A stretch of 64,000 nt of DNA from assembly GCF_000021745.1 (NCBI RefSeq), contig NC_011666.1, positions 1,860,001 through 1,924,000 on the forward strand. The letters run 5' to 3'. This DNA comes from Methylocella silvestris BL2 (GTDB lineage Bacteria > Pseudomonadota > Alphaproteobacteria > Rhizobiales > Beijerinckiaceae). This document shows positions 6,166 to 26,468 of the stretch, one piece after another (position 1 is the stretch's first letter; the number at the start of each line of letters is the position of its first letter). A model generated the notes under the pieces. It saw nothing but the letters and a program-made list of their open reading frames with translations. It ran no database searches and was not told the DNA's origin. The translations under genes were made by a program, and so were the position numbers.

Positions 6166-7365
6166 GTGGAGGAGGGGAAGCTGGACATTCACGAATATCA
6201 GGCCAAGGAGATCCTGGCCAACTTCGGGGTCGCAACCCCGCGCGGCGCTGTCGCCTACAGCCCCGATCAAGCCGTCTATTGCGCAACCGAACTCGGCGGT
6301 TGGCATTGGGCCGTCAAGGCCCAGATCCACTCCGGCGGGCGCGGCAAGGCGGGCGGCGTCAAGCTGTGCAAGACCTACAATGAAGTGCGCGCCGCTGCCA
6401 GCGACATGCTCGGCAAGACGCTCGTCACCAACCAGACCGGCCCCGAAGGCAAGATCGTCCAACGCGTCTACATCGAGGCCGCCGAACCCTTCGATCGCGA
6501 GATCTATCTCGGCTTCGTGCTCGACCGCAAAGTGGAGCGCGTGCGCATCATCGCATCGCGCTTCGGCGGCATGGAGATCGAGGAGATCGCCAAGGAACAT
6601 CCGGAAGAAATTCTCCAGGTCGTCGTCGAGCCAGCCGTTGGGTTGCAGGCGTTCGAGGCGCGCGAGCTCGCCTTCGGCCTCGGCCTCAATCTGAAGCAGG
6701 TCAGCCGCGCGGTGCAGAGCATGCTCGGCTGCTATCGCGCCTTCCGCGACCTCGACGCGACCATGGTCGAGATCAACCCGCTTGTGGTCACCAAGGACGA
6801 CCGCGTGCTGGCGCTCGACGCCAAGATGTCGTTCGACGACAACGCGCTGTTCCGGCGCAGCGCCATCTCCGACATGCGCGATCATTCGCAGGAGGATCCG
6901 CGCGAGGTCCAGGCCGCCGAACACAATCTCAACTATGTCGGACTCGACGGCGACATCGGCTGCATCGTCAACGGCGCCGGCCTCGCGATGGCGACGATGG
7001 ACATGATCAAATATGCCGGCGGCGCTCCGGCGAACTTCCTCGACGTCGGCGGCGGCGCGTCGCCTGAGCGCGTCGCGGCCGCGTTCCGCCTCGTGTTGTC
7101 CGACCGCAACGTCAAGGCGATCCTCGTCAATGTGTTCGCCGGCATCAACCGGTGCGATTGGGTCGCCGAAGGCGTCGTCCAGGCCTGCCGCACCCTCAAC
7201 GTCAATGTTCCTCTTATCGTGCGTCTCTCCGGCACCAACTTCGCGGCCGGGCGCGAGATCATCGTCAACAGCGGGCTGCCGATCATTTCAGCAGACACTC
7301 TCGCCGACGCCGCCCGCGCGGCGGTCGAAGCGGCCGGGCAAGCGCCGGCCAGAAGCCTGAACTGA
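6166..7365 (+). CDS. mtkA: Malate--CoA ligase (malate thiokinase) large subunit
   Basis: The ATP-grasp beta subunit of the two-part malate thiokinase, a relative of succinyl-CoA synthetase. With MtkB it makes malyl-CoA from malate, CoA and ATP. The N-terminus [16 protein letters not shown], the segment [14 protein letters not shown] near residue 50 and [19 protein letters not shown] are typical. The start is uncertain. The GTG at 6166 gives 399 residues, but family members usually begin MDVHEYQAKE. Here that position is a CTG at 6181, with a very strong Shine-Dalgarno sequence (6168-6177) placed exactly for it. The CTG start would give 394 residues. It is the first gene of the plus-strand block, 76 bp before mtkB. 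Confidence 0.95.
6168..6177 (+). promoter_or_regulatory. Strong Shine-Dalgarno that points to a CTG start for mtkA
   Basis: GGAGGAGGGG ends 3 bp before the CTG at 6181, with the GGAGG core 8 bp from it. Starting at the upstream GTG (6166) would bury this sequence inside the coding region, where it would have no use. The spacing and the protein family's usual N-terminus both favour the CTG. Confidence 0.55.
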
Positions 7366-7441
7366 ACAAGATCAAAAGCCCTTTCGCGCCGCAATTTTTA
7401 GATTTCATTGTGGCGCAATCGGCTTTTAGGAGAGCTGCGAG

Positions 7442-8368
7442 ATGAGCATTCTAATCGACGAGAACAGCCGCGTCCTGGTGCAGGGTTTTACCGGCGACAA
7501 AGGCACTTTCCACGCCAAGGAAATGATCGAATGCGGCACCAATGTCGTCGGCGGCGTGACGCCCGGCAAGGGCGGCGCGACCCACCTCGGCAAGCCGGTG
7601 TTCAACACGGTCAAGGACGCGGTTCGCGCGACCGGGGCCAATTGTAGCATCACCTTCGTTGCGCCGGCCTTCTGCGCCGACGCCATCATGGAGGCCGCGG
7701 ACGCCGGCATCGGGCTCGTGTGCTCGATCACCGACGGCATTCCGGCGCAGGACATGATGCGGGTCAAGCGTTATCTGTTGCGCTATCAGCGCGGCCGCCG
7801 CACCCTGATGGTGGGGCCGAACTGCGCCGGCATCATCAGCCCCGGCAAAGCCATGCTCGGCATCATGCCAAGCAACATCTACATGCGCGGCTCGGTCGGC
7901 ATCGTGTCGCGCTCGGGAACGCTCGGCTATGAGGCCGCCGCGCAAATGAAAGAGCTCGGCATCGGCGTCTCGACCAGCGTCGGCATCGGCGGCGACCCGA
8001 TCAACGGCAGCTCCTTCCTCGACCATTTGATCCTGTTCGAACAGGATCCCGAGACCGAAGCCGTGATGATGATCGGCGAAATCGGCGGCCCGCAGGAAGC
8101 CGAGGCCGCGGCCTGGATCAAGGACAACATGACAAAGCCGGTGGTTGGCTATGTCGCCGGCCTGACCGCGCCCAAGGGGCGCCGCATGGGCCATGCCGGC
8201 GCGATCATCTCCGCCTCCGGAGACAGCGCCGCCGAAAAATCCGAGATCATGAAATCCTACGGCCTCACCGTCGCACCGAGCCCGAGCGAGCTCGGCGCAA
8301 CCATGGCCCGGGTGCTCGGCCGCAGCACGACGCCAGCCAAGGCGCCCGAAGCCGTAGCCGCGCATTAA
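7442..8368 (+). CDS. mtkB: Malate--CoA ligase (malate thiokinase) small subunit
   Basis: A 308-residue CoA-binding subunit, homologous to the succinyl-CoA synthetase alpha subunit. The N-terminal CoA-binding fold is marked by VQGFTGDKGTFHAKEM. The phosphohistidine expected for this family is H251 in GRRMGHAGAIISASGD, and GIVSRSGTLGYEAA lies mid-protein. It partners MtkA directly upstream and produces the malyl-CoA cleaved by Mcl, encoded two genes downstream. The ATG at 7442 follows an AGGAGAG site. Confidence 0.96.
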   Translation: MSILIDENSRVLVQGFTGDKGTFHAKEMIECGTNVVGGVTPGKGGATHLGKPVFNTVKDAVRATGANCSITFVAPAFCADAIMEAADAGIGLVCSITDGIPAQDMMRVKRYLLRYQRGRRTLMVGPNCAGIISPGKAMLGIMPSNIYMRGSVGIVSRSGTLGYEAAAQMKELGIGVSTSVGIGGDPINGSSFLDHLILFEQDPETEAVMMIGEIGGPQEAEAAAWIKDNMTKPVVGYVAGLTAPKGRRMGHAGAIISASGDSAAEKSEIMKSYGLTVAPSPSELGATMARVLGRSTTPAKAPEAVAAH

Positions 8369-12522: not shown

Positions 12523-12828
12523 ATGAAACTCTTCTACGTCACGCTCAACACGATCGATGAAGCGCGCCGGATCGCCCGCGCCGCGCTGGAGCAGCGCGTC
12601 GCCGTTTGCTGCAACTGGTTTCCGATCACCTGCGCCTATCGATGGGACGAGGAAATCAAGGAGGAGCCGGAAATCGTGCTTCTCATCAAGACGCAGGACG
12701 GCAGGCGCGCGTCCATTGAGGCCATCGTCGGCAGCGTCGTCGATTACGTCAATTGCATTGTCGAGCTTGCGCCTTCCTCCGTCAATACAGCCTTTCTCGA
12801 TTGGCTCGATCGCGACGCGCCCTCGTGA
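12523..12828 (+). CDS. CutA-like divalent-cation tolerance protein
   Basis: A 101-residue protein whose first 65 residues follow the CutA1 plan: a ferredoxin-like fold start (FYVTLNTIDEARRIARAALEQRVAVC), then YRWDEEIKEEPE and VLLIKT. The usual HPYEVPEI segment is missing and is replaced by VDYVNCIVEL, and the C-terminus FLDWLDRDAPS is CutA-like. CutA proteins form trimers and their role is poorly understood. It sits 54 bp after mcl with a hairpin between. No metal ligand can be assigned. The family call is good and the function uncertain, so the symbol is withheld. Confidence 0.75.
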   Translation: MKLFYVTLNTIDEARRIARAALEQRVAVCCNWFPITCAYRWDEEIKEEPEIVLLIKTQDGRRASIEAIVGSVVDYVNCIVELAPSSVNTAFLDWLDRDAPS

Positions 12829-13154
12829 AACCGGCCTTTATGGCTATCTACCCACGAAATTACCGGCGCCAGCTCGGGTCACCTGTCCTCAACCTTGTTC
12901 ACATGACGCCGGATCGCGGGAGCTACCACTGGCGGCCTTGACGCGTTAATGCGCTAAGCTGGGGCGCGATGTACCTGGCGCATCAGACCACCTTCGACTG
13001 GCTGGACGAGACTCTGGCAAACATCTAGCGGGGTCTGTGGGGCCGCCCGCACATCGCCTCACCGCGTCCCCACAAAATGTTTGCGCCAGAACCTTTTAGG
13101 ATTCTTTCCTCACTGGGACCGAGGTCGAGGGGGCTTTCGCTACGCCCAAATTTG
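12829..13154. other. Gap between the cutA-like gene and the frd-rquA operon
   Basis: About 325 bp with no supported gene. A 19-codon frame at 12969-13028 has no recognisable match. TGTGGGG near 13036 and CCCCACA near 13070 could pair across a 27-nt gap, downstream of rquA on the minus strand. This is the left boundary of the rhodoquinone operon. No insertion-sequence ends or target-site duplications were recognised. Confidence 0.4.
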
Positions 13155-13859
13155 TCATTTTCGTTCGGCGGTTACGATCTGGTACAGCCCGCGGAACCGC
13201 GTGTTTTTGCGCCACTGGAAACCATCCGCCGCCGCTCCGGCCAGCGTCTGGATTTCATGCGCCCAGAGGCTGGCGGCAAACGGCTCGAGCCGCTCGAATA
13301 TCCGCTTCATCACCGGCTTCAGCGGGTGCCAGCGATGTGGGCGGTGGTAGTCCACGAAGATCACCTTGCCGGTCGGCCCCACCAGCCCGAGCATGGCGTG
13401 GATCACCTGCACCTTCACCTGGTCCGGCACTTCATGCAGCAAGAAGAAGCAGGTGACGGCATCGAATTCGCCGTCCTGCGGAATTGATGCGTCGGCCCAG
13501 GCCACATTCGCCTGCGGCAGGTCGGCCAGCTTGCGCCGGGTCAAGCAAACCTGGAGCGGCGCGACGTCGCGCACCTCCAATCGGCCCTGCGGACCGACGC
13601 GCTGCGCCACCTGGCGAGAAAAGTCCCCATACACGGCCGCCGGCTGAAACACCCGGTCCCCCGGCTGCAAGGCAGCCAGCACGTCGCCCATCAGCCGCTG
13701 CGCATTGCCCCACAAAATCGCCTGCACCACGATCTGTCGATCGAAGAACCACGCCGTGCCGGGCGTAAGGTAGGCCCAAGTGTAGACATCGCGCAGATAC
13801 GCGGGCAGCAGTTCCAGGCTCATGTCTGGCAGTGGAATATTCGACACTATATTTGCCAC
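13155..13859 (-). CDS. rquA: Rhodoquinone biosynthesis protein RquA
   Basis: A 234-residue class I SAM-dependent fold protein matching RquA of Rhodospirillum rubrum in layout: YLRDVYTWAY (21-30), WFFDRQIVVQAILWGN (37-52), VFQPAAVYGDFSRQV (70-84), CFFLLHEVPDQV (137-148) and VIFVDYHRPHRWHPLKPVMK (166-185). RquA turns ubiquinone into rhodoquinone, using SAM as amino donor. As in known RquA proteins, the first SAM motif lacks the D/ExGxGxG pattern of true methyltransferases such as UbiE. Translation probably begins at the GTG at 13857-13859, with a weak Shine-Dalgarno sequence. It is the last gene of the frd operon, 28 bp after frdD, which strongly supports the call. Confidence 0.9.
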   Translation of the reverse strand: MANIVSNIPLPDMSLELLPAYLRDVYTWAYLTPGTAWFFDRQIVVQAILWGNAQRLMGDVLAALQPGDRVFQPAAVYGDFSRQVAQRVGPQGRLEVRDVAPLQVCLTRRKLADLPQANVAWADASIPQDGEFDAVTCFFLLHEVPDQVKVQVIHAMLGLVGPTGKVIFVDYHRPHRWHPLKPVMKRIFERLEPFAASLWAHEIQTLAGAAADGFQWRKNTRFRGLYQIVTAERK

Positions 13860-13887
13860 CGGGATAAGAGGATGGGAATCCGAGACA

Positions 13888-14271
13888 TCAAAAGCCGATC
13901 AGCAACAGCAACACGAAGGTCGCCACGGTCACGACAGCGGCGACGCCATAGGTCGCCAGCCGCAAGACAGGCGCGCCGGCCACGCGCATGTCTTTGAGCG
14001 TCAAAAACAGCCGCTCGGCGCCGTGCCAAAAGAACAGGGAAATCACGGCCAGCAACACGAGTTTGCCGATCGGATTCCGCGCAAACGCCAGTGCGTGAGG
14101 AAAATCGGCGAAATCCGCCGGCACACCCCAGCCATGCGGCGCCATGATGCCGGTCAGGATGATCAGCGCCGGCCCGAACAAGGCCGACAGCATGCCGCCA
14201 GCCCCGAACAGCAACCAGAAGACCGGAGCGACGCTGCGGGCCGGCGGGTGAGGCGCGTTCGGAAATGTCAT
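13888..14271 (-). CDS. frdD: Fumarate reductase membrane subunit D
   Basis: A 127-residue hydrophobic protein with three membrane helices. The segment PVFWLLFGAGGMLSA near the N-terminus is almost the same as in E. coli FrdD, and the helix order and length agree. With FrdC it anchors the FrdAB catalytic part and binds the quinol. The ATG at 14269-14271 overlaps the frdC stop codon by 4 bp (ATGA), a sign of coupled translation. An in-frame upstream extension exists but is frdC shadow. In this operon the electron donor is inferred to be rhodoquinol because rquA follows directly. Confidence 0.92.
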   Translation of the reverse strand: MTFPNAPHPPARSVAPVFWLLFGAGGMLSALFGPALIILTGIMAPHGWGVPADFADFPHALAFARNPIGKLVLLAVISLFFWHGAERLFLTLKDMRVAGAPVLRLATYGVAAVVTVATFVLLLLIGF

Positions 14272-14672
14272 GACCACGCTCCCACGATGATCGCGCCCAC
14301 CAGCAGAGCGACCGAACAGGCGCACGCGATGGACAATGTGACGGCAGAGAGCAGCCTCTGCGGCACCAGCCGGCCCCGCAGCACGAGCTTGGGCATCGTC
14401 TTCGGCAGGATCTGGAACCACGTCACCACGTGCCACAGCACAGCCGCCAACAGCAATAGATGCGCCAATAGCGACCATGGACTGGCTAAAGCGCGCCGAT
14501 ATGCGTCATAGGCGTCCGGTCCGCGCCACAGGCAAACCACGCCGGCCAGCAGAATGGCGCCATACACAGCGACCGCGACGCCGCATAACTCACGGATGGT
14601 GTAGGCGCGGTATGGCTTGTGAGCCCACCAGCGGCTTGGCCGGGGGCGGTGGAAAGGGCGACTCTCATTCAT
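14268..14672 (-). CDS. frdC: Fumarate reductase membrane subunit C
   Basis: A 134-residue protein with three predicted transmembrane helices. It follows E. coli FrdC closely: RPSRWWAHKPYRAYTIREL at the N-terminus and HVVTWFQILPKTMPKLVLRG mid-protein, compared with HTKTWFELAPK in E. coli. E28 in TIREL aligns with E. coli Glu29, a residue important in quinol oxidation. No heme ligands are expected in this four-subunit type D enzyme. The start overlaps the frdB stop codon by 4 bp and the end overlaps frdD. Confidence 0.92.
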   Translation of the reverse strand: MNESRPFHRPRPSRWWAHKPYRAYTIRELCGVAVAVYGAILLAGVVCLWRGPDAYDAYRRALASPWSLLAHLLLLAAVLWHVVTWFQILPKTMPKLVLRGRLVPQRLLSAVTLSIACACSVALLVGAIIVGAWS

Positions 14673-15445
14673 GCGCTGGGCTCCTTACGCAAGAAGCGCA
14701 GAAAGAAATCGAATGCGCTGTTCGACTTGTTTTGGTTTACGGCATTGGCCGGATCGACCTGCTTGGGGCACACATCAGAGCACACGCCGACCGCGGTGCA
14801 TGACCACACGCCATCCTCGCCGCTGATCTGTTCCAGGCGCAGTTGCTGCCCACCGTCGCGTGAATCGCCGTTGTAGCGCTGCAGCAGCGCCATCGCGCCC
14901 GGCCCGATGAAGTCCGGATTGGCGCCGAATTGCGGGCATGCCGCATAGCACAGCATGCAATTGATGCAATCGGCGAACGACCCATATGCCGCCATCTGCC
15001 CCGGCGTCTGCAAATACGCGCCATCTTCGATCGTCTTTGGCGCCTTCGGCATGATGTAAGGATAGATGCTTTCGATCTTCTTGACGAAGTCGCCAACGGT
15101 TACGATCAGGTCCCGCTCGATCGGGAAATTATGCAGCGGCTCGAGCGTCACCGGTTCGGACGCGAGGTCCCGCAGAAAGGTGCTGCAGGCGAGTTTTGGC
15201 TCGCCATTGATCATCATGCCGCAGCTCCCGCACACCGCCATGCGGCAGGACCATCGAAACGACAGCGTGGCGTCAAGTGAGACCTTGACCGCCTGCAACG
15301 CCTGCAGAACCGACATGTCGTCCGTGAACGGCAGATGGTAGGTCATGAAGACGGGTTCGGTGTCCGACGCGGGGCGGTACCGCAGCACCCGAAGTTCGAC
15401 AATCTTGGGTTTGTCGACCGGAACCGCTGTGGTTTCGCTATACAT
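14669..15445 (-). CDS. frdB: Fumarate reductase iron-sulfur subunit
   Basis: A 258-residue electron-transfer subunit. All cluster cysteines can be placed: [2Fe-2S] at C67, C72, C75 and C87; [4Fe-4S] at C160, C163, C166 and C226; [3Fe-4S] at C170, C216 and C222. The segment CINCMLCYAACPQFGANPDF is nearly that of E. coli FrdB. The ATG at 15445 was chosen because AAGGA lies 8 bp upstream. An ATG two codons earlier (15451) is too close to that site. It overlaps the end of frdA by 8 bp. A much longer in-frame extension upstream is antisense-like shadow of frdA and was discarded. Confidence 0.94.
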   Translation of the reverse strand: MYSETTAVPVDKPKIVELRVLRYRPASDTEPVFMTYHLPFTDDMSVLQALQAVKVSLDATLSFRWSCRMAVCGSCGMMINGEPKLACSTFLRDLASEPVTLEPLHNFPIERDLIVTVGDFVKKIESIYPYIMPKAPKTIEDGAYLQTPGQMAAYGSFADCINCMLCYAACPQFGANPDFIGPGAMALLQRYNGDSRDGGQQLRLEQISGEDGVWSCTAVGVCSDVCPKQVDPANAVNQNKSNSAFDFFLRFLRKEPSA

Positions 15446-17222
15446 GACCATTTTCCTTGGCTGCCGCATCATCCAGCTTCTCGCCCAGCGCCCCATAGGC
15501 CCGCTGCCCCGGCGGCAAGCGGGTGATGGTGACCGCGCCATAGCTGATCGTGGGCGGCGCGCTCCCCTGGTAGTGGGCGAGGCTGTGGCAAAGGAACTTG
15601 GCGTCGTCGCGCGTCTCGAAGCCGTCCAGCCGCTGGTGAGCGCCGCGCGATTCCGTCCGAGCCAGGGCAGACGTCGCCATGGCCTCCGCGATATCGAGCT
15701 GGAAGCCAAGCTCGATAGCCGATAACCAATCGGTGTTCCAGGCCCGCGAGCGATCCTGCAGCGTGATGTCGGCATAGCGGCGCTTAAGCTCGGCGATCGT
15801 ATCGCAGGTCTCCTGCATCTCCGGCCCGAGACGATAGATGCCGCAGCCCTTTTCCATGCTCTTGCCCATCGTCTCGCGCAGCAGGGCGTGCTGCTCTCCG
15901 CCGCCCTTCTGCTGCAGCAGCCCCAAGGCCTTGGCCTCGATGGCCTCCGCCTGGCCAGACCTGCGGGGCGGCGGGGCGGCGCGCGCGAACGCCGCCGCCT
16001 GCTCTCCGGCGACCCGGCCAAACACCGACAATTCCGCAAGTGAATTCGAACCCAGGCGGTTGGCGCCGTGGATGCCGACGCTGGAGCATTCGCCGGCCGC
16101 ATAAAGCCCCGCCAGCGGCGAGGCCGTGTTGATGTCGACCAGAATGCCGCCCATCGTGTAGTGCACCGCCGGCCGTACGGGGATCGCCGCAGTGACCGCA
16201 TCGATGCCCATGAACTCCCGGGCCAGGTCACAGATCAGCGGCAGCCGCTCCTTGAGCTTTCGCGCGCCAAGATGGCGCAGGTCGAGCAGCACCGCCTCGC
16301 CCTGCGGGGTGGTGACGGTGCGGCCTTTGCGTTCCTCGTGCCAGAACGCCTGGCTCAGCCGGTCGCGCGGCCCCAGCTCCATGAACTTGTTATGCGGCTG
16401 CGCCTCTGCCGGACCGAGGCCGTAATCCTGCAGATAGCGATAGCCGTCCTTGTTGACCAGCAATCCGCCTTCGCCACGGCAGGCCTCGGTAATCAGAATA
16501 CCCGTGCCCGGCAGGCAGGTTGGGTGGTATTGCACAAACTCCATGTCGCGCAGGGGGACGCCGTGGCGATACGCCATGGCCATGCCATCGCCGGTGACGA
16601 TCCCGCCATTGGTATTCTGACGGAACACCCGCCCGGCGCCGCCGGTCGCAATGACCACGGAGCGCGCCGTGATCGTGGCAAATTCTCCCGTCGATTGCGA
16701 CAGCACGACAGCGCCCTGGGCGCGGCCATCCTCAACCAGCAGGTCGACGCAGAAATGCTCGTCGAAACGCTGGATCGATGGAAACTTGGTCGAGGTCTGG
16801 AACAGCGTGTGCAGGATATGAAAACCGCTACGGTCGGCGGCGAACCATGTCCGCTCGATTTTCATGCCGCCGAAAGCGCGGACGTTGATGTTGCCGTCCG
16901 GTTTGCGGCTCCAGGGGCAGCCCCAATGCTCGAGCTGTATCATCTCGGGCGTGCAGCGAGAGACGAAATAGTCGACCACATCCTGCTCGCACAACCAGTC
17001 GCCGCCGGCGACCGTGTCGTGGAAATGCGCGTCGAGGCTGTCATGAGCCTGCACAACGCCTGCCGAGCCGCCCTCAGCCGCCACCGTATGGCTGCGCATC
17101 GGATACACCTTGGACACGAGCGCAATTCTCAGATCGGGGGCCGACTGCGCTGCGGCGATGGCGGCGCGCAGACCGGCACCGCCCGCGCCCAAAATCAGGA
17201 CATCGGTATCAAAGTATTCCAC
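15438..17222 (-). CDS. frdA: Fumarate reductase flavoprotein subunit
   Basis: A 594-residue catalytic subunit, compared with about 602 in E. coli. The FAD-binding N-terminus DTDVLILGAGGAGLRAAIAA and the covalent-FAD histidine H45 in RSHTVAAEGG are present. The active-site residues expected from E. coli are seen at H233 (QYHPT), E246 (ITEACRGEGG) and R286 (GPRDR), with HYTMGG and GANRLGSNSLAEL further on. It resembles E. coli FrdA more than SdhA (for example WGCPWSRKPDG and FWHEERKG). Translation starts at the GTG at 17220-17222 with AAAGGA upstream. The gene lies 13 bp after the transporter gene. Confidence 0.95.
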   Translation of the reverse strand: MEYFDTDVLILGAGGAGLRAAIAAAQSAPDLRIALVSKVYPMRSHTVAAEGGSAGVVQAHDSLDAHFHDTVAGGDWLCEQDVVDYFVSRCTPEMIQLEHWGCPWSRKPDGNINVRAFGGMKIERTWFAADRSGFHILHTLFQTSTKFPSIQRFDEHFCVDLLVEDGRAQGAVVLSQSTGEFATITARSVVIATGGAGRVFRQNTNGGIVTGDGMAMAYRHGVPLRDMEFVQYHPTCLPGTGILITEACRGEGGLLVNKDGYRYLQDYGLGPAEAQPHNKFMELGPRDRLSQAFWHEERKGRTVTTPQGEAVLLDLRHLGARKLKERLPLICDLAREFMGIDAVTAAIPVRPAVHYTMGGILVDINTASPLAGLYAAGECSSVGIHGANRLGSNSLAELSVFGRVAGEQAAAFARAAPPPRRSGQAEAIEAKALGLLQQKGGGEQHALLRETMGKSMEKGCGIYRLGPEMQETCDTIAELKRRYADITLQDRSRAWNTDWLSAIELGFQLDIAEAMATSALARTESRGAHQRLDGFETRDDAKFLCHSLAHYQGSAPPTISYGAVTITRLPPGQRAYGALGEKLDDAAAKENGHV

Positions 17223-17235
17223 AAGGCAATCCTTT

Positions 17236-18756
17236 CTAACCGACGAGGAACAGCATCGGCACACCGACGAGCAGAAAGACCAGCAGATAGTAGCCGCCGA
17301 AGATGGCCCCCAGACGCCAGTAATCGCGCCCCGGCAGGAAGCCGCTGCCAGCGTAGACCGGGCTAGGCCCGGTGCCATATGGGGTGATGATCCCCATGAT
17401 GCCAAGGCTCAGGCACAACCCCAGCGCAGCGGTGGCGATCGGCAGGCCGGGGATTTTGGTCGCCACGATCAGCATCAATGGCAGCAGAGCGGTGGTATGA
17501 GCGGTGGTGCTGGCGAACAGGTAATGCAGCAGAAAAAACAGCACGATCAGCGCGATCAACCCGGCCAATGCCGGCAAGGTCGCCAAGAGCGGGCCGACCA
17601 ATCCGGCGAGCCACGCCACCACGCCGACCTGCGCCAGCCCGGCGGCCAACGCCACCAGCGTGCCGAACCACACCAGGGTGTTGAACGCCGGCTTGTCGTC
17701 CAGCACATCGGTCCAGGTGATCGTGCGGGTCACCACCAGCAACCCGACTACCATCAGCGCCACCGTGGTCGGATCCACCATCTGCGCGCCGAAAATCCAC
17801 AGCGCCAGGGCCAGGATAACCAGGATCAGAAGCGTGATCTCCTTGCCGGAGAATGCGCCGAGTTCGCCCAGTTGCTGCCGCGCCCATGCCGGCACCTCCG
17901 GGCATCGCTTCAACTCGGGGGGATACAAGACGTAAGCGAGCAGTGGGGTCGTCGCCAACAGGATCAATCCGACCGGGAGGAAGGCGATGAACCATTGCCC
18001 CCAGCCTAGTTCGACATGGACGGTCTTGCGCACCAGCTCGACTGCGAGAATGTTCGGCGCCAGCCCGGTCAGGAACATCGAACTGGTGACGCATGTCGAG
18101 GCGATCGCCGTCCACATGAGATAGCTGCCGATGCGCCGGGACGACGGATCATTGGGGAGGGACTGGTAGAATTCCGGGATGTTCTTAATGACCGGGAAGA
18201 TCGTGCCGCCGCTGCGCGCCGTGTTGGACGGCATGAAGGGCGCCAGCAGCAGATCGGCAAACATGACGGCATAGCCGAGGGTCAGCGTGCGCGCGCCGAG
18301 CCGCGACAGCAAGAGCAGCGAAATCCGTTTGCCGAGGCCCGTTTTCTCGTACCCCAGGGAAAAAACGAAGGCCGAGAAAATCAGCCATACGGTCGAATTG
18401 GAGAAGCCCGAGAGCGCCCAGGAAATCGCCGCCGCGTTGGCGTTGAAGCCTGGCGCCGCCAGCTGCGCTGGCGAGAACAGGACGAAATGTGAGAGCGCCG
18501 CCCCTGCTGTTATGCCGAGAAAGCCGACCGCAGCCGCAGGAACCGGCTCGACGATCAGCCCGACGATAACGGTGACGAATAGCGCCAGATAGCGCCAGCT
18601 ATATAGCGGCAGCCCCGGCGGCGCGGGGAGCAGGATCATGATGAGGCCGATGGCCAGCGGCAAAGCGGCCATTAGCGTATGCCGGCTGAGCGGCGATGCG
18701 CTGGCCACCGACGACTGCGGGTGCTCGCGCAAAAACGCCTTCGAGTGAAAGTTCAT
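17236..18756 (-). CDS. DASS-family (SLC13-like) dicarboxylate transporter
   Basis: A 506-residue inner-membrane carrier with about a dozen hydrophobic helices. The two DASS signature loops are PSNTARSGG (176-184) and FASTTAHTTA (414-423), which correspond to the paired SNT/STT substrate motifs. Relatives (CitT, TtdT, plant DiT1) move C4-dicarboxylates or 2-oxoglutarate. In an operon with fumarate reductase, fumarate or malate uptake and succinate export are the likely tasks; this is inference. It starts at the ATG at 18754-18756 with AAGGA five bases upstream. It is the first gene of the operon, 70 bp from the FNR-type box, and is followed by frdA after 13 bp. Confidence 0.88.
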   Translation of the reverse strand: MNFHSKAFLREHPQSSVASASPLSRHTLMAALPLAIGLIMILLPAPPGLPLYSWRYLALFVTVIVGLIVEPVPAAAVGFLGITAGAALSHFVLFSPAQLAAPGFNANAAAISWALSGFSNSTVWLIFSAFVFSLGYEKTGLGKRISLLLLSRLGARTLTLGYAVMFADLLLAPFMPSNTARSGGTIFPVIKNIPEFYQSLPNDPSSRRIGSYLMWTAIASTCVTSSMFLTGLAPNILAVELVRKTVHVELGWGQWFIAFLPVGLILLATTPLLAYVLYPPELKRCPEVPAWARQQLGELGAFSGKEITLLILVILALALWIFGAQMVDPTTVALMVVGLLVVTRTITWTDVLDDKPAFNTLVWFGTLVALAAGLAQVGVVAWLAGLVGPLLATLPALAGLIALIVLFFLLHYLFASTTAHTTALLPLMLIVATKIPGLPIATAALGLCLSLGIMGIITPYGTGPSPVYAGSGFLPGRDYWRLGAIFGGYYLLVFLLVGVPMLFLVG

Positions 18757-18798
18757 CGTAATCCTTGCTCGAAAGTGAAATGCAACCCGTCCTTGACG

Positions 18799-18840
18799 AG
18801 CATACCCCACATCGAGCTCTTGAGCGTTGACCTGGATCAA
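18799..18840 (-). promoter_or_regulatory. FNR/FixK-type activated promoter of the transporter-frd-rquA operon
   Basis: On the minus strand, TTGATCCAGGTCAA (18827-18840) fits the FNR/FixK consensus TTGAY-N4-RTCAA without mismatch. Exactly 22 bp downstream is TATGCT (18799-18804), a fair -10 element. If transcription starts about 7 bp after it, near 18792, the box is centred at -41.5, the classic class II activation position. The untranslated leader would then be about 36 nt. No good -35 exists apart from the box, as expected for an activated promoter. Confidence 0.75.
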
Positions 18841-19049
18841 GAAGGCATCAAATCGGCGCCGCCCAAACCACCGGGAAGCCGTATCGCAACGCGTGGCGGC
18901 GGAGGCCATTGATCGGTCTGGCGCGGCGACCGCCAAGCGTCTGACAAACGCGCGTCCGCTAGCGGCCGCCGCAGTGATCTCGGGTAGGGCGGCGTCGTCA
19001 ACTCGCGCGCGCGAAGACATAAAATCTGGCGGCCCTCTCCGTTGAACTC

Positions 19050-19740
19050 AGACACAACAATGTGTTCCGGCAAGATCCCTGCGAACTGCGGCGGCGGCGT
19101 TGCGCCGCGCGCGATCATCGGGCGCCGTGAGGTCATGGCGAGCAAAGTGTGACAGGTTGGCGATCGGATCATGAAGGAAGACAAAGCGCTGGAGTTAAAG
19201 GGTTGGTTTGACGCGCTTCATGATCCGCTCGCGTCGTCTTGTTAGCTGGCGCGAATCCTCCGCGCGATCGTCGAGGTTTTTGTGCTGACGATGCGCGAAT
19301 CACAAGCCCATATCATTGCGCGGCGCCATAAGAGCCAAGCTTGACTTTAGATCATGAAACGCGGGATGCGCTTGCTTGCGAATAAGTTTGAGTAGAAGCC
19401 TCTCGGCGGCGGGCTGCTTCAGCTTTGAACCAAAACGTCGAGAACGAAGCCGTCCCTATCTACGGCGCGCCAAAGCCAATGTGTCTTGCGGTTGATCGAG
19501 ATAGCGATGTCATCAAGACGCCGTTTGTCCGCCAATCAAGGCCCAGGCGGCGGAGCGATTTCTCGGCCCCGCGCTGGACGCTTTCATGGCTGACCATGAC
19601 CCTTGGCGCCGTCAGAAGATCTTTAACAATTCTAAAGCTCAAGGGAAAGCGAAAATAGAGCCAAATCGCGTGGCGATCGCCTCCGCCGGAAAACGAGGCC
19701 GCGATAAAGAGACGATTGCGCTTTAGTTCATAGCCGAAAA
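19050..19740 (-). pseudogene. Decayed IS6-family transposase
   Basis: On the minus strand, around 19720-19480, a frame reads AIWLYFRFPLSFRIVKDLL, then TAPRVMVSHESVQRGAEKS and LRRLGLDWRTNGVL, which follow the IS6/IS26-type transposase N-terminus and helix-turn-helix. After a stop, RAVDRDGFVLDVLVQS (DDE region) appears, and further on in another frame FAHRQHKNLDDRAEDSRQLT and MKRVKPTLQLQRFVFLHDP, typical of the C-terminus. At least one stop codon and several frame changes make it inactive. No intact terminal inverted repeats were found. It lies directly upstream of the frd-rquA operon promoter. Confidence 0.8.
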
Positions 19741-20275
19741 ATACGCCAGAAGCGCTTCAAGCTGTTGACTTGTTGGCCGCGTCGGCGGGGCGACTGGCCG
19801 GCTGCCGCACGACCCGCACCGCGACCGCCCGACTCCGTAATTTCGATGAGCGCTTCCTTAAGCTTTCAGTCGGCGGCAATTCCCTTTTCCGGCTTGCCCT
19901 CAGCCTTCTCGACGAGCTACGCGGCGATTACGACGTGTGTTCCAAAAACCCCCAACCATTGCGTCGCCAAGGTTAGCAGCGCGTTCCGCGCCGGGTCGTT
20001 GCTGCGGATGATTTCCATCGAAACCACGGGGTCCGCGTGGCGGGGCCAGATCAAGGCGTCCCGCACGACGCGCGACCACCCACGAAGCTTCCGAGTGGGG
20101 CGGCCTGTTGTGGGCGTCCCGGAATGAAGAAAGCGCGCAGGATGGTCAGGGCAGCGACGACATACTTGGCGCGATATGTCTTGGCCATTTCGATTGAATC
20201 GAAATCGAACGCGCGAAGACGGGCTGCATGCTCGCGCCCGGCTCGATCGCGACGGGTCGACGCCCAAATAAATAG
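19741..20275. other. Gene-poor remnant region
   Basis: About 535 bp between the transposase relic and the next gene. A plus-strand frame at 19770-19976 (68 codons) and short minus-strand frames are present, but none has a recognisable motif, a good ribosome site or a family resemblance. It looks like eroded mobile or transferred DNA. Confidence 0.35.
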
Positions 20276-20701
20276 TCAATCGGCGCGCGCCATCTGGGCC
20301 GATTTCTTTCGCTCGGCGTTGGATGCGCTCATGACGGCGTCCCAATCCGGCGCGCCAGATGTCAGAAAATTGATGATCGCCCGGGCTGCTTGCGTGGCGC
20401 TGGCGCGCCAGCCGGGATGGCTGTGGTTCACCGTAAAATCCGGGAAGAACAGCGCCGAGAGCGGGGCGCCGCCCTGCGCCTGGCTTTGCACATAGCGCCG
20501 CGCTCCGCGCACGGAGACGCCGTGAGCCAGCGCCATATGGCCGCCAATACAGCCGATCGAGCCGCAATCCGACGCGGCGCGCGCCATATCGAGCGCGATG
20601 TCTTCGTTAAGCAGCTTTGCGGCCAGCGCGATCAACTCCTCGCGCTCCCAATCTTCGACGCCGAGCGCGCTCGCGTGCAAATAGGGTTGATGATGCTTCA
20701 T
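20276..20701 (-). CDS. Hypothetical protein, 141 residues
   Basis: It starts at the ATG at 20699-20701 with a good GGAG site seven bases upstream, and begins MKHHQPYLHASALGVEDWE. The protein is soluble, with an acidic helical N-terminus, a CGSIGCIGGHMALAHG stretch near residue 47 containing two cysteines and two histidines, and a C-terminal helix. The spacing of C and H residues could suit metal or cofactor binding, but no family is recognised. A longer in-frame extension upstream has no support. It is transcribed away from the molybdopterin-like gene to its right. Confidence 0.6.
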   Translation of the reverse strand: MKHHQPYLHASALGVEDWEREELIALAAKLLNEDIALDMARAASDCGSIGCIGGHMALAHGVSVRGARRYVQSQAQGGAPLSALFFPDFTVNHSHPGWRASATQAARAIINFLTSGAPDWDAVMSASNAERKKSAQMARAD

Positions 20702-21510: not shown

Positions 21511-21705
21511 TGATCGACTCCTTTCGCAGCTTGGGTCGCCTACGCCACGATTCCCTCGCAAACAAGACGACGCCGCATCGGGTTCCCGGCATGGAAGCCC
21601 ATTAGGCCGCCATCATGTGAAAGCTCTTCCGTCGTGCGCCGCGGCACGTCGCGCCTCGTGGCGAAGCGCTATGTTTCCGCCTCGCGCCTGTTGCGGAGAC
21701 TCGTC

Positions 21706-22221
21706 ATGATATTTGAGCAATTTGAAAGCGGCGATGCGGGCCCGACCGCATCCTCGGCGGATCACGCCAGCAAATTTCCCTGCTGCGGTCAGTACCTGAA
21801 ATATTGGCTGAGCCCGCAGACGATGAAGGCGAAAACGCCGGACCGTTGGAAAATTTTCGTGAAATGGTGCGGCAACAATGAGGTTTGGGCGACCGAAGCC
21901 TGCGCCTGGGGCAAAGGCCCGCTCGTGCAAATCAACAGCGCAAAAGTGGGCCACGCCATGGGGCGCACCACTGGCGATGACAACGGCCAGGTTGTTTGCT
22001 TCATTCATGGCAAGGTCGCCAACAAATACGAACAGGGCAACGGCTGGATCATCTGGGAATCGACCGTGCTGCACGAACTCATCCACTGGACGCGCTGGAA
22101 GCAGAAGCTGTCCGACCCGACCGACGACGCCGGAAATGCGATCGAAGTCGGCAAGGCGTTCGAGGCGGAAGCCTATGGCGCCGACGTCACGCTGCAGACG
22201 CCGTGGCGCGCTGGGCCGTAA
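21706..22221 (+). CDS. Putative zinc metallopeptidase-like protein (HELIH motif)
   Basis: A 171-residue protein with HELIH at 123-127, the HExxH zinc-binding motif, followed by EVGKAFEAEAYG (147-158), whose E153 or nearby residues could be a third ligand. The arrangement, in which HELIHW is followed about 25 residues later by FExxAYG, recalls the Tox-MPTase3 group of predicted toxin metallopeptidases, though here it stands alone without a delivery domain. There is no signal peptide, and the five cysteines lie in the N-terminal half. The ATG at 21706 has GGAG upstream. It abuts the topoisomerase gene, which ends on the next base in the opposite direction. Family placement is tentative. Confidence 0.55.
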   Translation: MIFEQFESGDAGPTASSADHASKFPCCGQYLKYWLSPQTMKAKTPDRWKIFVKWCGNNEVWATEACAWGKGPLVQINSAKVGHAMGRTTGDDNGQVVCFIHGKVANKYEQGNGWIIWESTVLHELIHWTRWKQKLSDPTDDAGNAIEVGKAFEAEAYGADVTLQTPWRAGP

Positions 22222-24770: not shown

Positions 24771-25619
24771 GTGGCGCCGCGCGCGAACTGGAAAGGCGTC
24801 CTGAAGGTCGCCGAACTGACCTCACAGATTTCGCTGTTCACCGCCGCCTCGACTTCGGAGCGCATCGCGTTTCATACGCTAAATCGCAAAACCGGCCATC
24901 GCGTGCAGCGGCAATTCATCGACGCCGAAACCGGAAAGCCGGTGGCGCCGGACGATCAGGTCAAGGGCTATGAGACCGGGCATGGCGAATACGTCATGCT
25001 TGAGGCTGACGAGATTGCGGCGGCCATTCCCGAAAGCGACAAGACGCTCGACGTCCAGGCCTTCATCTCCTGCGACGAAGTCGACGACGTTTTCTTTGAT
25101 CGCCCCTATTATCTGGCGCCAAGCAACCAGGCCACCGAGGAGGCTTTCGCGCTGCTGCGCGAGGGGATGCGCGCAAAAAAGGTTGCAGCGCTGGCGCGCG
25201 CGATGCTGTTTCGCCGGATGCGCTCGCTGCTGATCCGCCCCTCTGGCGCCGGACTGATCGCGAGCACCCTCAACTTCGATTATGAAGTCCGCTCCGCCGA
25301 CGAAGCCTTCGCCGATGTGCGCGACGTCAAGATCGAGGGCGAGATGCTTGATCTCGCCGAACACATCATCAAGACGAAGACCGGCAAGTTTGACGTCAGC
25401 AAGTTCGACGACCGCTATGAGGCGGCCGTCGCCGCTCTCGTCAAGGCGAAGCTTGAAGGCCGCAAGATCGAGCCGCCAAAACCGGTCGCGGCGACCAATG
25501 TGACGAGCCTGCTCGACGCGCTGAGGGAGAGCGCCAAAGGGACCGCCAGGGCGACAGCGAAATCGACCTCGAAGGCGAGCGAGGCAAAAACCCGCGCGCC
25601 GCGGAAAAAGGCGAGCTGA
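24771..25619 (+). CDS. ku: Non-homologous end-joining protein Ku (first copy)
   Basis: A 282-residue Ku that would form a ring dimer on DNA ends and recruit LigD. It has the Ku core with ERIAFHTLNRKTGHRVQRQF, DDQVKGYETGHGEYVMLE and LPRS-like ALARAMLFRRMRSLLIRP. A lysine- and alanine-rich C-terminal tail (AKSTSKASEAKTRAPRKKAS) is typical of bacterial Ku and binds DNA. The start is the GTG at 24771 with GGAG upstream. It is probably co-transcribed with the DUF763 gene and converges with the second ku (14 bp between stop codons). It differs clearly from that copy, so the two are paralogues rather than a recent duplication. Confidence 0.95.
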   Translation: MAPRANWKGVLKVAELTSQISLFTAASTSERIAFHTLNRKTGHRVQRQFIDAETGKPVAPDDQVKGYETGHGEYVMLEADEIAAAIPESDKTLDVQAFISCDEVDDVFFDRPYYLAPSNQATEEAFALLREGMRAKKVAALARAMLFRRMRSLLIRPSGAGLIASTLNFDYEVRSADEAFADVRDVKIEGEMLDLAEHIIKTKTGKFDVSKFDDRYEAAVAALVKAKLEGRKIEPPKPVAATNVTSLLDALRESAKGTARATAKSTSKASEAKTRAPRKKAS

Positions 25620-25633
25620 CGGCGTCGAGCCGC

Positions 25634-26449
25634 TCAGCGCCCCTTGGGCTTTTTCGCAGCCGGACCGAGGCTTTTGCGCAGGGCGTCCATGATGTCGATG
25701 ACATTGCTCTCCGCGCTGCCCTTCCCCGTCTTTTCCTCGGCTTTGGTCTTTTTCGCCGGCGGCGTTTTCTTGGCCTCGATGATATCCCGCAGCCGATCCT
25801 GCACCGGATCGCTCGCCATCTCCGGGCTCCAGGGTTTAACGCGCTCCTCGATCAGCCTGTTAACGAGAGACAACAGCTCGGGGACCGGCTTTTGATCCTT
25901 GATGGCGTCGAAATAGAGCTTTGGATCGCGCACCTCGTCGCCATAACGCAGCGTCCATAGGATGATGCCCTTGCCGCGCGGCTCCAGCAACACCGCGCGT
26001 TCGCGGCGGTAGAGCACGAGGCGGGAAATCCCGACCATTTTGGTCGCCTTCATCGCCTCTCGGATGACGGCGAAAGCTTCCTCTCCAACTTCGTCGCCCG
26101 GGGTCAGATAGTGCGGCGCGTCATACCAGATCCAGTCGATCGAGTCGGCCGGCGCGAACAGCTCGATGTCGATCGTGCGGGCGCTCTCCAGCGCGACGGA
26201 ATCGAGTTCCTCATCTTCGAGCATGACGTAAGACTGATCGTCGCGCGGAAAGCCCTTGACCTGATCGGCCGAATCTACAGGCTTGCCCGAAACCGAATCG
26301 ATGTAGCGGCTTTGCACCCTGTTGCCGGTAGCCCGGTTCAGCGTGTGAAAGCGCAGCTTTTCCTTTTCGGATTTCGCCGGCGCCATGACCACGGGGCAGG
26401 TCACGAGCGAGAGCTTCAGATAACCTTTCCAGAATGAACGCGGAGCCAT
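25634..26449 (-). CDS. ku: Non-homologous end-joining protein Ku (second copy)
   Basis: A 271-residue Ku starting at MAPRSFWKGYLKLSLVTCPV, the common N-terminus of Ku proteins paired with LigD. It shows KEKLRFHTLNRATGNRVQSR, DQVKGFPRDDQSYVMLEDEE and GISRLVLYRRERAVLLEPRG. The basic tail is shorter than in the first copy. The ATG at 26447-26449 has AAAGG upstream. It lies 19 bp after ligD in the same direction, so it is the likely main LigD partner. Alphaproteobacteria such as Sinorhizobium also carry several ku genes that form different homo- or heterodimers. Confidence 0.95.
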   Translation of the reverse strand: MAPRSFWKGYLKLSLVTCPVVMAPAKSEKEKLRFHTLNRATGNRVQSRYIDSVSGKPVDSADQVKGFPRDDQSYVMLEDEELDSVALESARTIDIELFAPADSIDWIWYDAPHYLTPGDEVGEEAFAVIREAMKATKMVGISRLVLYRRERAVLLEPRGKGIILWTLRYGDEVRDPKLYFDAIKDQKPVPELLSLVNRLIEERVKPWSPEMASDPVQDRLRDIIEAKKTPPAKKTKAEEKTGKGSAESNVIDIMDALRKSLGPAAKKPKGR

Positions 26450-26468
26450 AGGCTGCCTTTCTTGCGGA

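What the first reader, a model, noticed from the sequence alone, without database searches (positions are those of the whole stretch)
13155..18840. Complete rhodoquinone-fumarate respiration module in a serine-cycle methylotroph
Six genes in one minus-strand transcript encode a DASS transporter, FrdA, FrdB, FrdC, FrdD and RquA. FrdA-D follow the E. coli type D enzyme subunit by subunit, with active-site and cluster residues intact. RquA makes rhodoquinone from ubiquinone. Having the quinone maker, the reductase and a C4-dicarboxylate carrier in one operon gives a portable unit for fumarate respiration. I know of no well-described example in a methylotroph or methanotroph, though this cannot be checked here. 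It would allow redox balance and succinate formation when O2 falls.
Basis: partly seen in the sequence, partly recalled or inferred. Interest (0 to 1): 0.92.

Follow-up and report, generated by a model that had tools for sequence, protein, structure and literature searches.

The report
Acquired rhodoquinone fumarate-respiration operon in methanotroph
An aerobic methane-eating bacterium carries an inserted six-gene cassette that should make the low-potential carrier rhodoquinone, use it to reduce fumarate to succinate, and swap that succinate out of the cell when oxygen is scarce.

Summary
On the minus strand at 18756-13155 lie DASS transporter-frdA-B-C-D-rquA, spaced as one transcript. RquA scores 297 bits (cut-off 175; UbiE model 38). 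All Frd catalytic and cluster residues checked are kept. The host encodes soluble methane monooxygenase and is very probably Methylocella silvestris BL2. Found here: (1) the operon lies in a 7.4-kb insertion between cutA and a gene that adjoins cutA in four congeners; a 15-bp direct repeat brackets it. (2) The transporter is of the CitT/LaINDY exchanger type, so it probably swaps a C4 acid for succinate. (3) A FixK/FNR-type box sits 41.5 bases upstream of an inferred start. (4) No UbiU/UbiV protein was found, so rhodoquinone should come from oxygen-made ubiquinone: a module for falling oxygen, not lasting anaerobiosis. (5) Its fumarate reductase is not of the lineage usually found beside rquA; its small subclade, all from rquA-bearing genomes, changes FrdB Phe206, invariant in the other sequences compared and recalled to line the quinone pocket. 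rquA near complex II genes is already published; the methanotroph host, the exchanger and the second frd lineage look new. Rhodoquinone and fumarate respiration themselves are not shown.

The parts
12803..12817 (.). left copy of 15-bp direct repeat GGCTCGATCGCGACG, in the 3' end of cutA
   Evidence: chance tests (1 of 3000 and 2 of 3000 shuffles, 3 of 20000 random real pairs)
12818..20239 (.). inserted segment (7,437 bp from repeat copy to repeat copy), absent from the same place in four congeners
13155..13859 (-). rquA, ubiquinone to rhodoquinone conversion (start codon uncertain)
   Evidence: NF038261 297.3 bits, cut-off 175; tree
13888..14271 (-). frdD, membrane anchor
   Evidence: NF003977, PF02313; PDB 1kf6_D
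14268..14672 (-). frdC, membrane anchor
   Evidence: PF02300 139.9 bits; PDB 1kf6_C; below the NCBIfam FrdC cut-off
14669..15445 (-). frdB, iron-sulfur subunit; 11 cluster cysteines kept; Phe206 to Ala
15438..17222 (-). frdA, flavoprotein subunit
   Evidence: NF006686 1025 bits; PDB 1kf6_A; residues
17236..18756 (-). DASS transporter of the exchanger (CitT/LaINDY) type
   Evidence: class features from PMC7553777 passages
18799..18804 (-). candidate -10 element TATGCT (inferred)
   Evidence: function inferred
18827..18840 (-). FixK/FNR-type box TTGATCCAGGTCAA, centre 41.5 bases from the inferred start site
   Evidence: (1 mismatch)
19327..19600 (-). frame-broken remnant that looks like an IS6/IS240-type transposase; only the piece 19514-19422 has family support
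   Evidence: translations; PF13610 E=2.3e-4, 21.8 bits, below its cut-off of 27; the two other pieces matched no transposase family
20240..20254 (.). right copy of the 15-bp direct repeat; reads LDRDGSTPK-stop, like a displaced cutA tail

Best explanation
A horizontally acquired, oxygen-regulated operon for rhodoquinone-linked fumarate respiration. Shown by sequence: six intact genes of the named families, operon spacing, a FixK/FNR-type box, the insertion with its empty site, an exchanger-class transporter. Inferred: when O2 falls, a CRP/FNR-family activator (most likely FixK, locus L128) turns on the operon; RquA replaces a methoxy group of existing ubiquinone with an amino group, giving rhodoquinone; NADH dehydrogenase and other donors reduce it; FrdABCD oxidises rhodoquinol and reduces fumarate to succinate; the DASS exchanger takes in a C4-dicarboxylate and lets succinate out. 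Because no UbiU/UbiV was found, the ubiquinone should be made while O2 is present, so this is a redox valve for O2-limited or fluctuating conditions. The housekeeping SdhA elsewhere runs the ordinary oxidative direction.
For: RquA equivalog far above cut-off and far above UbiE models; groups with two Rhodopila MAG RquAs at 100/100, apart from E. coli UbiE. E. coli-type Frd with the recalled catalytic residues and 11 of 11 checked cluster cysteines kept, plus FrdC Arg28, Glu29, Trp86 and FrdB Lys228. Transporter 49-50% identical to E. coli CitT and TtdT; best PDB hit is LaINDY, whose exchanger residues Arg159, His392 and His401 are matched by Arg181, His411 and His420. Box at -41.5; 6 of 27 related frd promoters have such a box with at most one mismatch, 0.64 expected. 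FixK-like protein: PDB FixK2 4i2o E=1e-41. Empty site in four congeners; 15-bp repeat. No PF01136 protein in the one-contig genome, while the control rang in 8 of 14 genomes, E. coli included. Separate SdhA at 44%.
Against: No biochemical, expression or quinone data. In one survey 73 of 84 rquA genomes also have the O2-independent ubiquinone pathway (PMC11707229 passages); it was not found here, so the quinone supply under anoxia is doubtful. FrdD His80, which is His in all 59 other loci with a letter, is Glu here, and FrdB Phe206 is Ala: adaptation or loss of fitness. FrdC is below its NCBIfam cut-off. FixK scores below its NCBIfam cut-off (215.8 of 300). 21 of 27 related promoters show no such box at one mismatch. 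TtdT, an antiporter, has Arg and Tyr at the two His positions, so that criterion is not strict.
Confidence: 0.82

Rival explanations
1. The genes are real but the operon is idle or decaying in this host: an insertion whose Frd no longer couples well to quinone.
For: FrdD His80 to Glu is private (H in all 59 other loci with a letter); FrdC 31% identity; about 1.5 kb without a recognised gene beside it, holding a broken transposase remnant (only the remnant pieces were searched there); UbiU/UbiV not found.
Against: All six frames are intact with operon spacing, catalytic and cluster residues kept, promoter box present.
Confidence: 0.15
2. FrdABCD works mainly backwards, as a second succinate:ubiquinone oxidoreductase for growth on imported succinate; rquA is a bystander.
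For: Methylocella grows on succinate (PMC5824008 whole text; PMC7364539 passages); the DASS could import succinate.
Against: The genome has its own SdhA; frd genes and rquA adjoin in 31 of 76 loci; a rhodoquinone maker would not serve succinate oxidation; the transporter is of the exchanger class.
Confidence: 0.08
3. The 13155-13859 product is a UbiE-like methyltransferase, not RquA.
For: Pfam Ubie_methyltran matches at E=1.3e-6.
Against: 297 bits to RquA (cut-off 175) against 38 to UbiE (cut-off 378); tree.
Confidence: 0.01

Closest known systems
frdABCD next to rquA in Competibacteraceae, Burkholderiales, Lysobacterales, Rhodospirillales MAGs (linkage of rquA and complex II reported by Stairs et al. 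2018)
   Same: frd genes and rquA on one strand in 28 of the 63 loci retrieved, rquA last in 26 and first in 2
   Different: No CitT/TtdT-type DASS in the flank of any of 76 loci; the 13 of these operons put in the larger tree have FrdA in a separate clade
   Same: Closest FrdA found (70%); FrdB Ala206 and Asn225 shared
   Different: rquA first; its RquA is 37% identical to this one but 55% to that of L028; no DASS beside it
Uncultured Rhodopila MAGs (L013, L014)
   Same: Closest RquA (70-72%); FrdA 65%, same subclade
   Different: frdABCD and rquA are not adjacent
E. coli FrdABCD
   Same: Four-subunit quinol:fumarate reductase, FrdA 64.8%
   Different: E. coli uses menaquinol (recalled) and has no RquA match over the cut-off (control); FrdB Phe206 and FrdD His80 are replaced here
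CitT, TtdT and LaINDY exchangers
   Same: 49-50% to CitT/TtdT; Arg and two His of LaINDY matched
   Different: Sits in a frd-rquA operon; substrate untested

Membership tests
RquA | Score above the curated equivalog cut-off | tested here: met
   297.3 bits, cut-off 175
RquA | Groups with RquA and not UbiE in a tree | tested here: met
   69 rows with E. coli UbiE and one own-genome methyltransferase as outgroups (both on very long branches)
RquA | Makes rhodoquinone from ubiquinone | not testable with these tools
   needs LC-MS
E. coli-type four-subunit quinol:fumarate reductase | FrdA, FrdB, FrdC, FrdD families all present in order | tested here: met
   (FrdC below the NCBIfam cut-off, above the Pfam cut-off)
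E. coli-type four-subunit quinol:fumarate reductase | FAD-binding His, catalytic residues, 11 cluster Cys | tested here: met
   (residue list recalled)
E. coli-type four-subunit quinol:fumarate reductase | Quinone-pocket residues | tested here: inconclusive
   Of the recalled list, kept: FrdC R28, E29, W86; FrdB T205, K228; FrdD W14, F17, G18, R81. Changed: FrdB F206A, Q225N (N also in 13 of 28 loci without visible rquA); FrdC L89I; FrdD H80E
DASS exchanger (DASS-E) | Arg159, His392 (and His401) of LaINDY in place of the two Na+ sites | tested here: met
   Arg181, His411, His420 align; criterion from PMC7553777 passages
DASS exchanger (DASS-E) | Succinate:dicarboxylate exchange | not testable with these tools
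   transport assay needed
Published rquA-complex II linkage | rquA within 15 genes of complex II genes | tested here: met
   28 bases between frdD and rquA; criterion
FixK/FNR regulon | TTGAT-N4-ATCAA box at an activating position | tested here: inconclusive
   1 mismatch, centre 41.5 bases from an inferred start; start site not mapped; 4 such sites in the window, 1.04 expected
FNR (iron-sulfur) regulation | An FNR with the N-terminal cysteine motif in the genome | tested here: not met
   0 of the 9 Crp-type regulators over the cut-off carry it; 4 weaker hits were not examined
Anaerobic rhodoquinone lifestyle | O2-independent ubiquinone pathway (UbiU/UbiV) | tested here: not met
   no PF01136 match at E up to 0.001 in the one-contig genome

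The most novel reading that the evidence does not exclude
Two lineages of E. coli-type fumarate reductase were tuned independently to rhodoquinol. One is the usual rquA neighbour (FrdB Ser205, FrdD Ala18); the other, which includes this operon, changes FrdB Phe206, otherwise invariant here, to Ala or Leu. In the methanotroph this second type, with a succinate exchanger and FixK control, lets an aerobic methane oxidiser turn methane carbon into exported succinate when O2 runs low, using rhodoquinone made from stored ubiquinone.
Probability: 0.3. Interest if true: 0.78.

Novelty: new variant of a known kind. Interest (0 to 1): 0.58.

Why it matters
If the module works, an organism treated as an aerobic methanotroph has a low-potential respiratory branch for oxygen-poor soil, and a route from methane to excreted succinate. 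It is testable in a species in which gene deletions have been made (PMC7364539 passages). The FrdB Phe206 and FrdB Ser205/FrdD Ala18 patterns give a concrete way to ask how a fumarate reductase is fitted to rhodoquinone instead of menaquinone. It would also separate 'rhodoquinone for anaerobes' from 'rhodoquinone for oxygen fluctuation', since no O2-independent ubiquinone enzyme was found.

Tried and rejected
UbiE identity for the 13155-13859 product: rejected. A Na+-coupled symporter reading of the transporter: set aside for the exchanger class, since the only PDB matches at E up to 0.001 are LaINDY (two constructs) and two chloroplast dicarboxylate transporters. A plasmid-borne module: no RquA match at E up to 1e-10 in 72,556 plasmid records. 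Foreign base composition as evidence of transfer: insert 62.7% G+C, window 63.1%, so uninformative. tRNA-linked island: no tRNA in the window. Composite-transposon origin: only a broken remnant, on one side. FNR proper as the regulator: no FNR cysteine motif among 9 regulators. A sigma-70 promoter scan found nothing at the operon start (its one hit is on the other strand at 13826). Absence of particulate methane monooxygenase: my search was silent in all controls, so it shows nothing; a paper states it for the genus.

Choice of rows: the larger FrdA tree (46 rows) uses 14 of the 31 rquA-linked loci. The pocket counts use all 31, but 3 lack FrdB letters and 1 lacks FrdC/FrdD. The 28 comparison loci came from FrdA searches; in 28 of 28 no rquA is seen in the stretch held (one, L199, ends at its contig edge just past frdD), but rquA elsewhere in those genomes was not tested. 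The column scan used thresholds I chose (98% elsewhere, all 4 changed) and left out L122. Related sequences are not independent, so these counts reflect two or three evolutionary events at most. The windows for the repeat test were chosen after seeing the repeat. The quinone-pocket list and E. coli residue numbers are recalled; the two papers tried for them are not held. In a first, smaller FrdA tree the window's sister was E. coli (94/91); with more rows it is G1020 (97/79).
Full report
What is there. Six intact minus-strand genes run from 18756 to 13155: a DASS transporter, frdA, frdB, frdC, frdD and rquA, with gaps of 13, -8, -4, -4 and 28 bases. NCBIfam and Pfam name them; FrdC is below its NCBIfam cut-off (66 of 143) but well above the Pfam one (139.9 of 24.2). 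RquA scores 297 bits against a cut-off of 175, and 38 against UbiE. In a 69-row tree it joins two uncultured Rhodopila MAG RquAs with 100/100 support, away from E. coli UbiE (outgroup branches are very long). Against E. coli K-12 the subunits A-D are 64.8, 52.5, 31.0 and 42.0% identical. FrdA His44, His232, Thr244, Glu245, Arg287, His355, Arg390 and the 11 FrdB cluster cysteines are kept (numbers recalled).

Host. The genome is one 4,305,430-base contig. It encodes MmoX (PDB methane monooxygenase alpha chain, 1094 bits), one of four PF02332 genes lying in two pairs. Malate-CoA ligase genes lie at 6166-8368. No tool gave a name. I infer Methylocella silvestris BL2: the genome length is as I recall it; the order of sMMO, propane monooxygenase and PEP carboxylase genes fits the Msil numbers in PMC7364539 (passages); and congener G008 (about 4.3 Mb, about 80 contigs; 84-91% DNA identity beside the insertion) fits strain TVC (82 contigs, 4,292,072 bp, about 90% average identity to BL2; PMC5824008 whole text).

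Insertion. In congeners L092-L095 (4 of the 11 congener stretches fetched) cutA is followed directly by the gene at 20276-20701; in the other 7 neither gene was found beside the malyl-CoA lyase gene. In the window these neighbours are 7.4 kb apart. DNA homology to L092 stops at 12821 and resumes at 20325. An exact 15-base repeat, GGCTCGATCGCGACG, lies at 12803-12817 and 20240-20254. That length was reached in 1 of 3000 shuffles of the two ends, 2 of 3000 with wider ends, and 3 of 20000 random real pairs; the ends were chosen after seeing the repeat, and inexact repeats of similar length occur elsewhere in the 8 kb. The right copy continues as LDRDGSTPK-stop, like a displaced cutA tail. A frame-broken transposase-like remnant lies inside the right part; one of its three pieces matches PF13610 weakly. 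RquA over the cut-off occurs in none of the 14 congeners, and a match at E up to 1e-40 in 8 of 396 other genomes of the family. In the stretches fetched around those eight (4.9 to 19.9 kb) no frd gene was found.

How common is the arrangement? Of 63 rquA loci from genome contigs, 28 have frd genes on the same strand next to rquA, 26 with rquA last and 2 with rquA first (one further row, L027, has an opposite-strand, 39% identical complex II 8.5 kb away and was not counted). With 13 loci from other genomes it is 31 of 76. Stairs et al. 2018 already reported rquA within 15 genes of complex II and suggested operons (section 8 read). None of the 76 shows DASS, CitT, TtdT, DcuA or DcuB relatives at E up to 1e-5 in the flank held; two Rhodopila loci have a DctA relative. 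Flanks are short in some loci.

Transporter. It is 49.4% identical to E. coli CitT and 49.7% to TtdT, annotated as citrate:succinate and L-tartrate:succinate antiporters. Its best PDB matches, 6wu1 and 6wtw, are LaINDY (PMC7553777 passages). The paper gives Arg159 and His392, with His401 near by, as cation surrogates kept in exchangers and absent from cotransporters (passages). They align with Arg181, His411 and His420 here (paper and chain numbers differ by 28). TtdT itself has Arg and Tyr at the two His positions. I read the protein as a C4-dicarboxylate:succinate exchanger; substrates are untested.

Control. TTGATCCAGGTCAA at 18840-18827 is one mismatch from TTGAT-N4-ATCAA (four such sites in the window, 1.04 expected). 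Its centre is 41.5 bases upstream of 18792, the start I infer from TATGCT at 18804-18799. Of 27 related frd promoters (24 rquA-linked, 3 not) 6 have a box with at most one mismatch, 0.64 expected; 21 do not. Nine Crp-type regulators exceed the family cut-off; none has the FNR cysteine motif; four weaker hits were not examined. One (L128) matches FixK2 in the PDB at 1e-41 and NCBIfam FixK at 215.8 bits, under the 300 cut-off.

Quinone supply. No PF01136 protein (the family of UbiU/UbiV, recalled) is found, though the control rang in 8 of 14 genomes, E. coli included. In a published survey 73 of 84 rquA genomes had the O2-independent pathway (PMC11707229 passages). So rhodoquinone here should come from ubiquinone made with O2. 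RquA converting ubiquinone in one step is from PMC9814641 (abstract and passages) and PMC13386864 (passages).

Origin of the parts. RquA is nearest to Rhodopila MAGs (70-72%). The nearest FrdA in 398 genomes sampled from the phylum is that of unnamed G1020 (70%), which has rquA-frdABCD; its RquA is 37% identical to this one but 55% to that of L028, a member of the common rquA group. The Rhodopila genomes hold FrdA at 65% away from rquA. In a 46-row tree these four FrdAs form a subclade (97/94) inside the E. coli-type clade, while the 13 other linked FrdAs sampled, with G401 (no rquA seen on its short contig), form a separate 100/100 clade (the bootstrap had not fully settled). So rquA has been paired with at least two frd lineages, and the same frd lineage with two kinds of rquA.

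Quinone pocket. In the common linked group FrdB 205 is Ser in 26 of the 27 with letters and FrdD 18 is Ala in 29 of 29. In the subclade of this operon (window, G1020, two Rhodopila) FrdB 206 is Ala, Ala, Leu, Leu, against Phe in the other 27 linked loci with letters and in 28 of 28 comparison loci. No rquA is seen beside frd in those 28; their whole genomes were not searched for it. Scanning the 1096 E. coli columns of FrdA-D, only two are near-invariant elsewhere and changed in all four: FrdB 206 and FrdA 235 (Gly to Cys). That one of the two is on my recalled list of pocket residues is suggestive, not proof, and kinship confounds it. FrdD His80 to Glu is found in the window alone (His in all 59 other loci with a letter) and may instead mean weakened function.

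Literature. Searches: rquA + rhodoquinone + methanotroph, no paper; rhodoquinone + methanotroph, four papers, listing and abstract starts only, none on this subject by title; two of Methylocella/rhodoquinone/rquA, 24 papers of which the 20 listed hold no 'Methylocella'; 'methyloc' + rhodoquinone, one paper with one mention of each, not opened. A genome-scale model of M. silvestris has no word beginning 'fumar' in its main text. The library lacks most subscription papers and the BL2 genome paper.

Verdict. The genes and the insertion are solid; the rhodoquinone-fumarate function is very likely by family; oxygen control and succinate exchange are inferences with support; the pocket adaptation is a hypothesis. 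The operon is a new variant of a known kind, in a surprising host.

Noticed in passing
L134 minus strand (near G000:C1:1632312): A fragment matching the nitrate reductase alpha subunit (narG, 526.8 bits over 262 aa) lies beside a Crp-type regulator, so the host may have a second anaerobic respiratory branch.
   Followed up: partly
G020, G041, G495, G523, G564, G570, G590, G622, G637: Other rquA genes in the same family or order, 38-49% identical and without frd beside them in the stretches fetched; G041 has two copies.
   Followed up: partly
window 21634-22221 +: A protein with the Pfam domain 'Metallopeptidase toxin 3' (E=2.9e-62); it has a homologue in congener L092.
   Followed up: no
window 24771-29135: Ku (260.6 bits) and DNA ligase D, with a second ORF at 25634-26572 whose congener homologue also matches the first Ku at 37%: a non-homologous end-joining cluster, conserved in L092.
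   Followed up: no
FrdA position 235 (E. coli numbering), window frdA: Gly to Cys in all four members of the rquA-associated subclade, near-invariant elsewhere in the set, three residues from His232.
   Followed up: no
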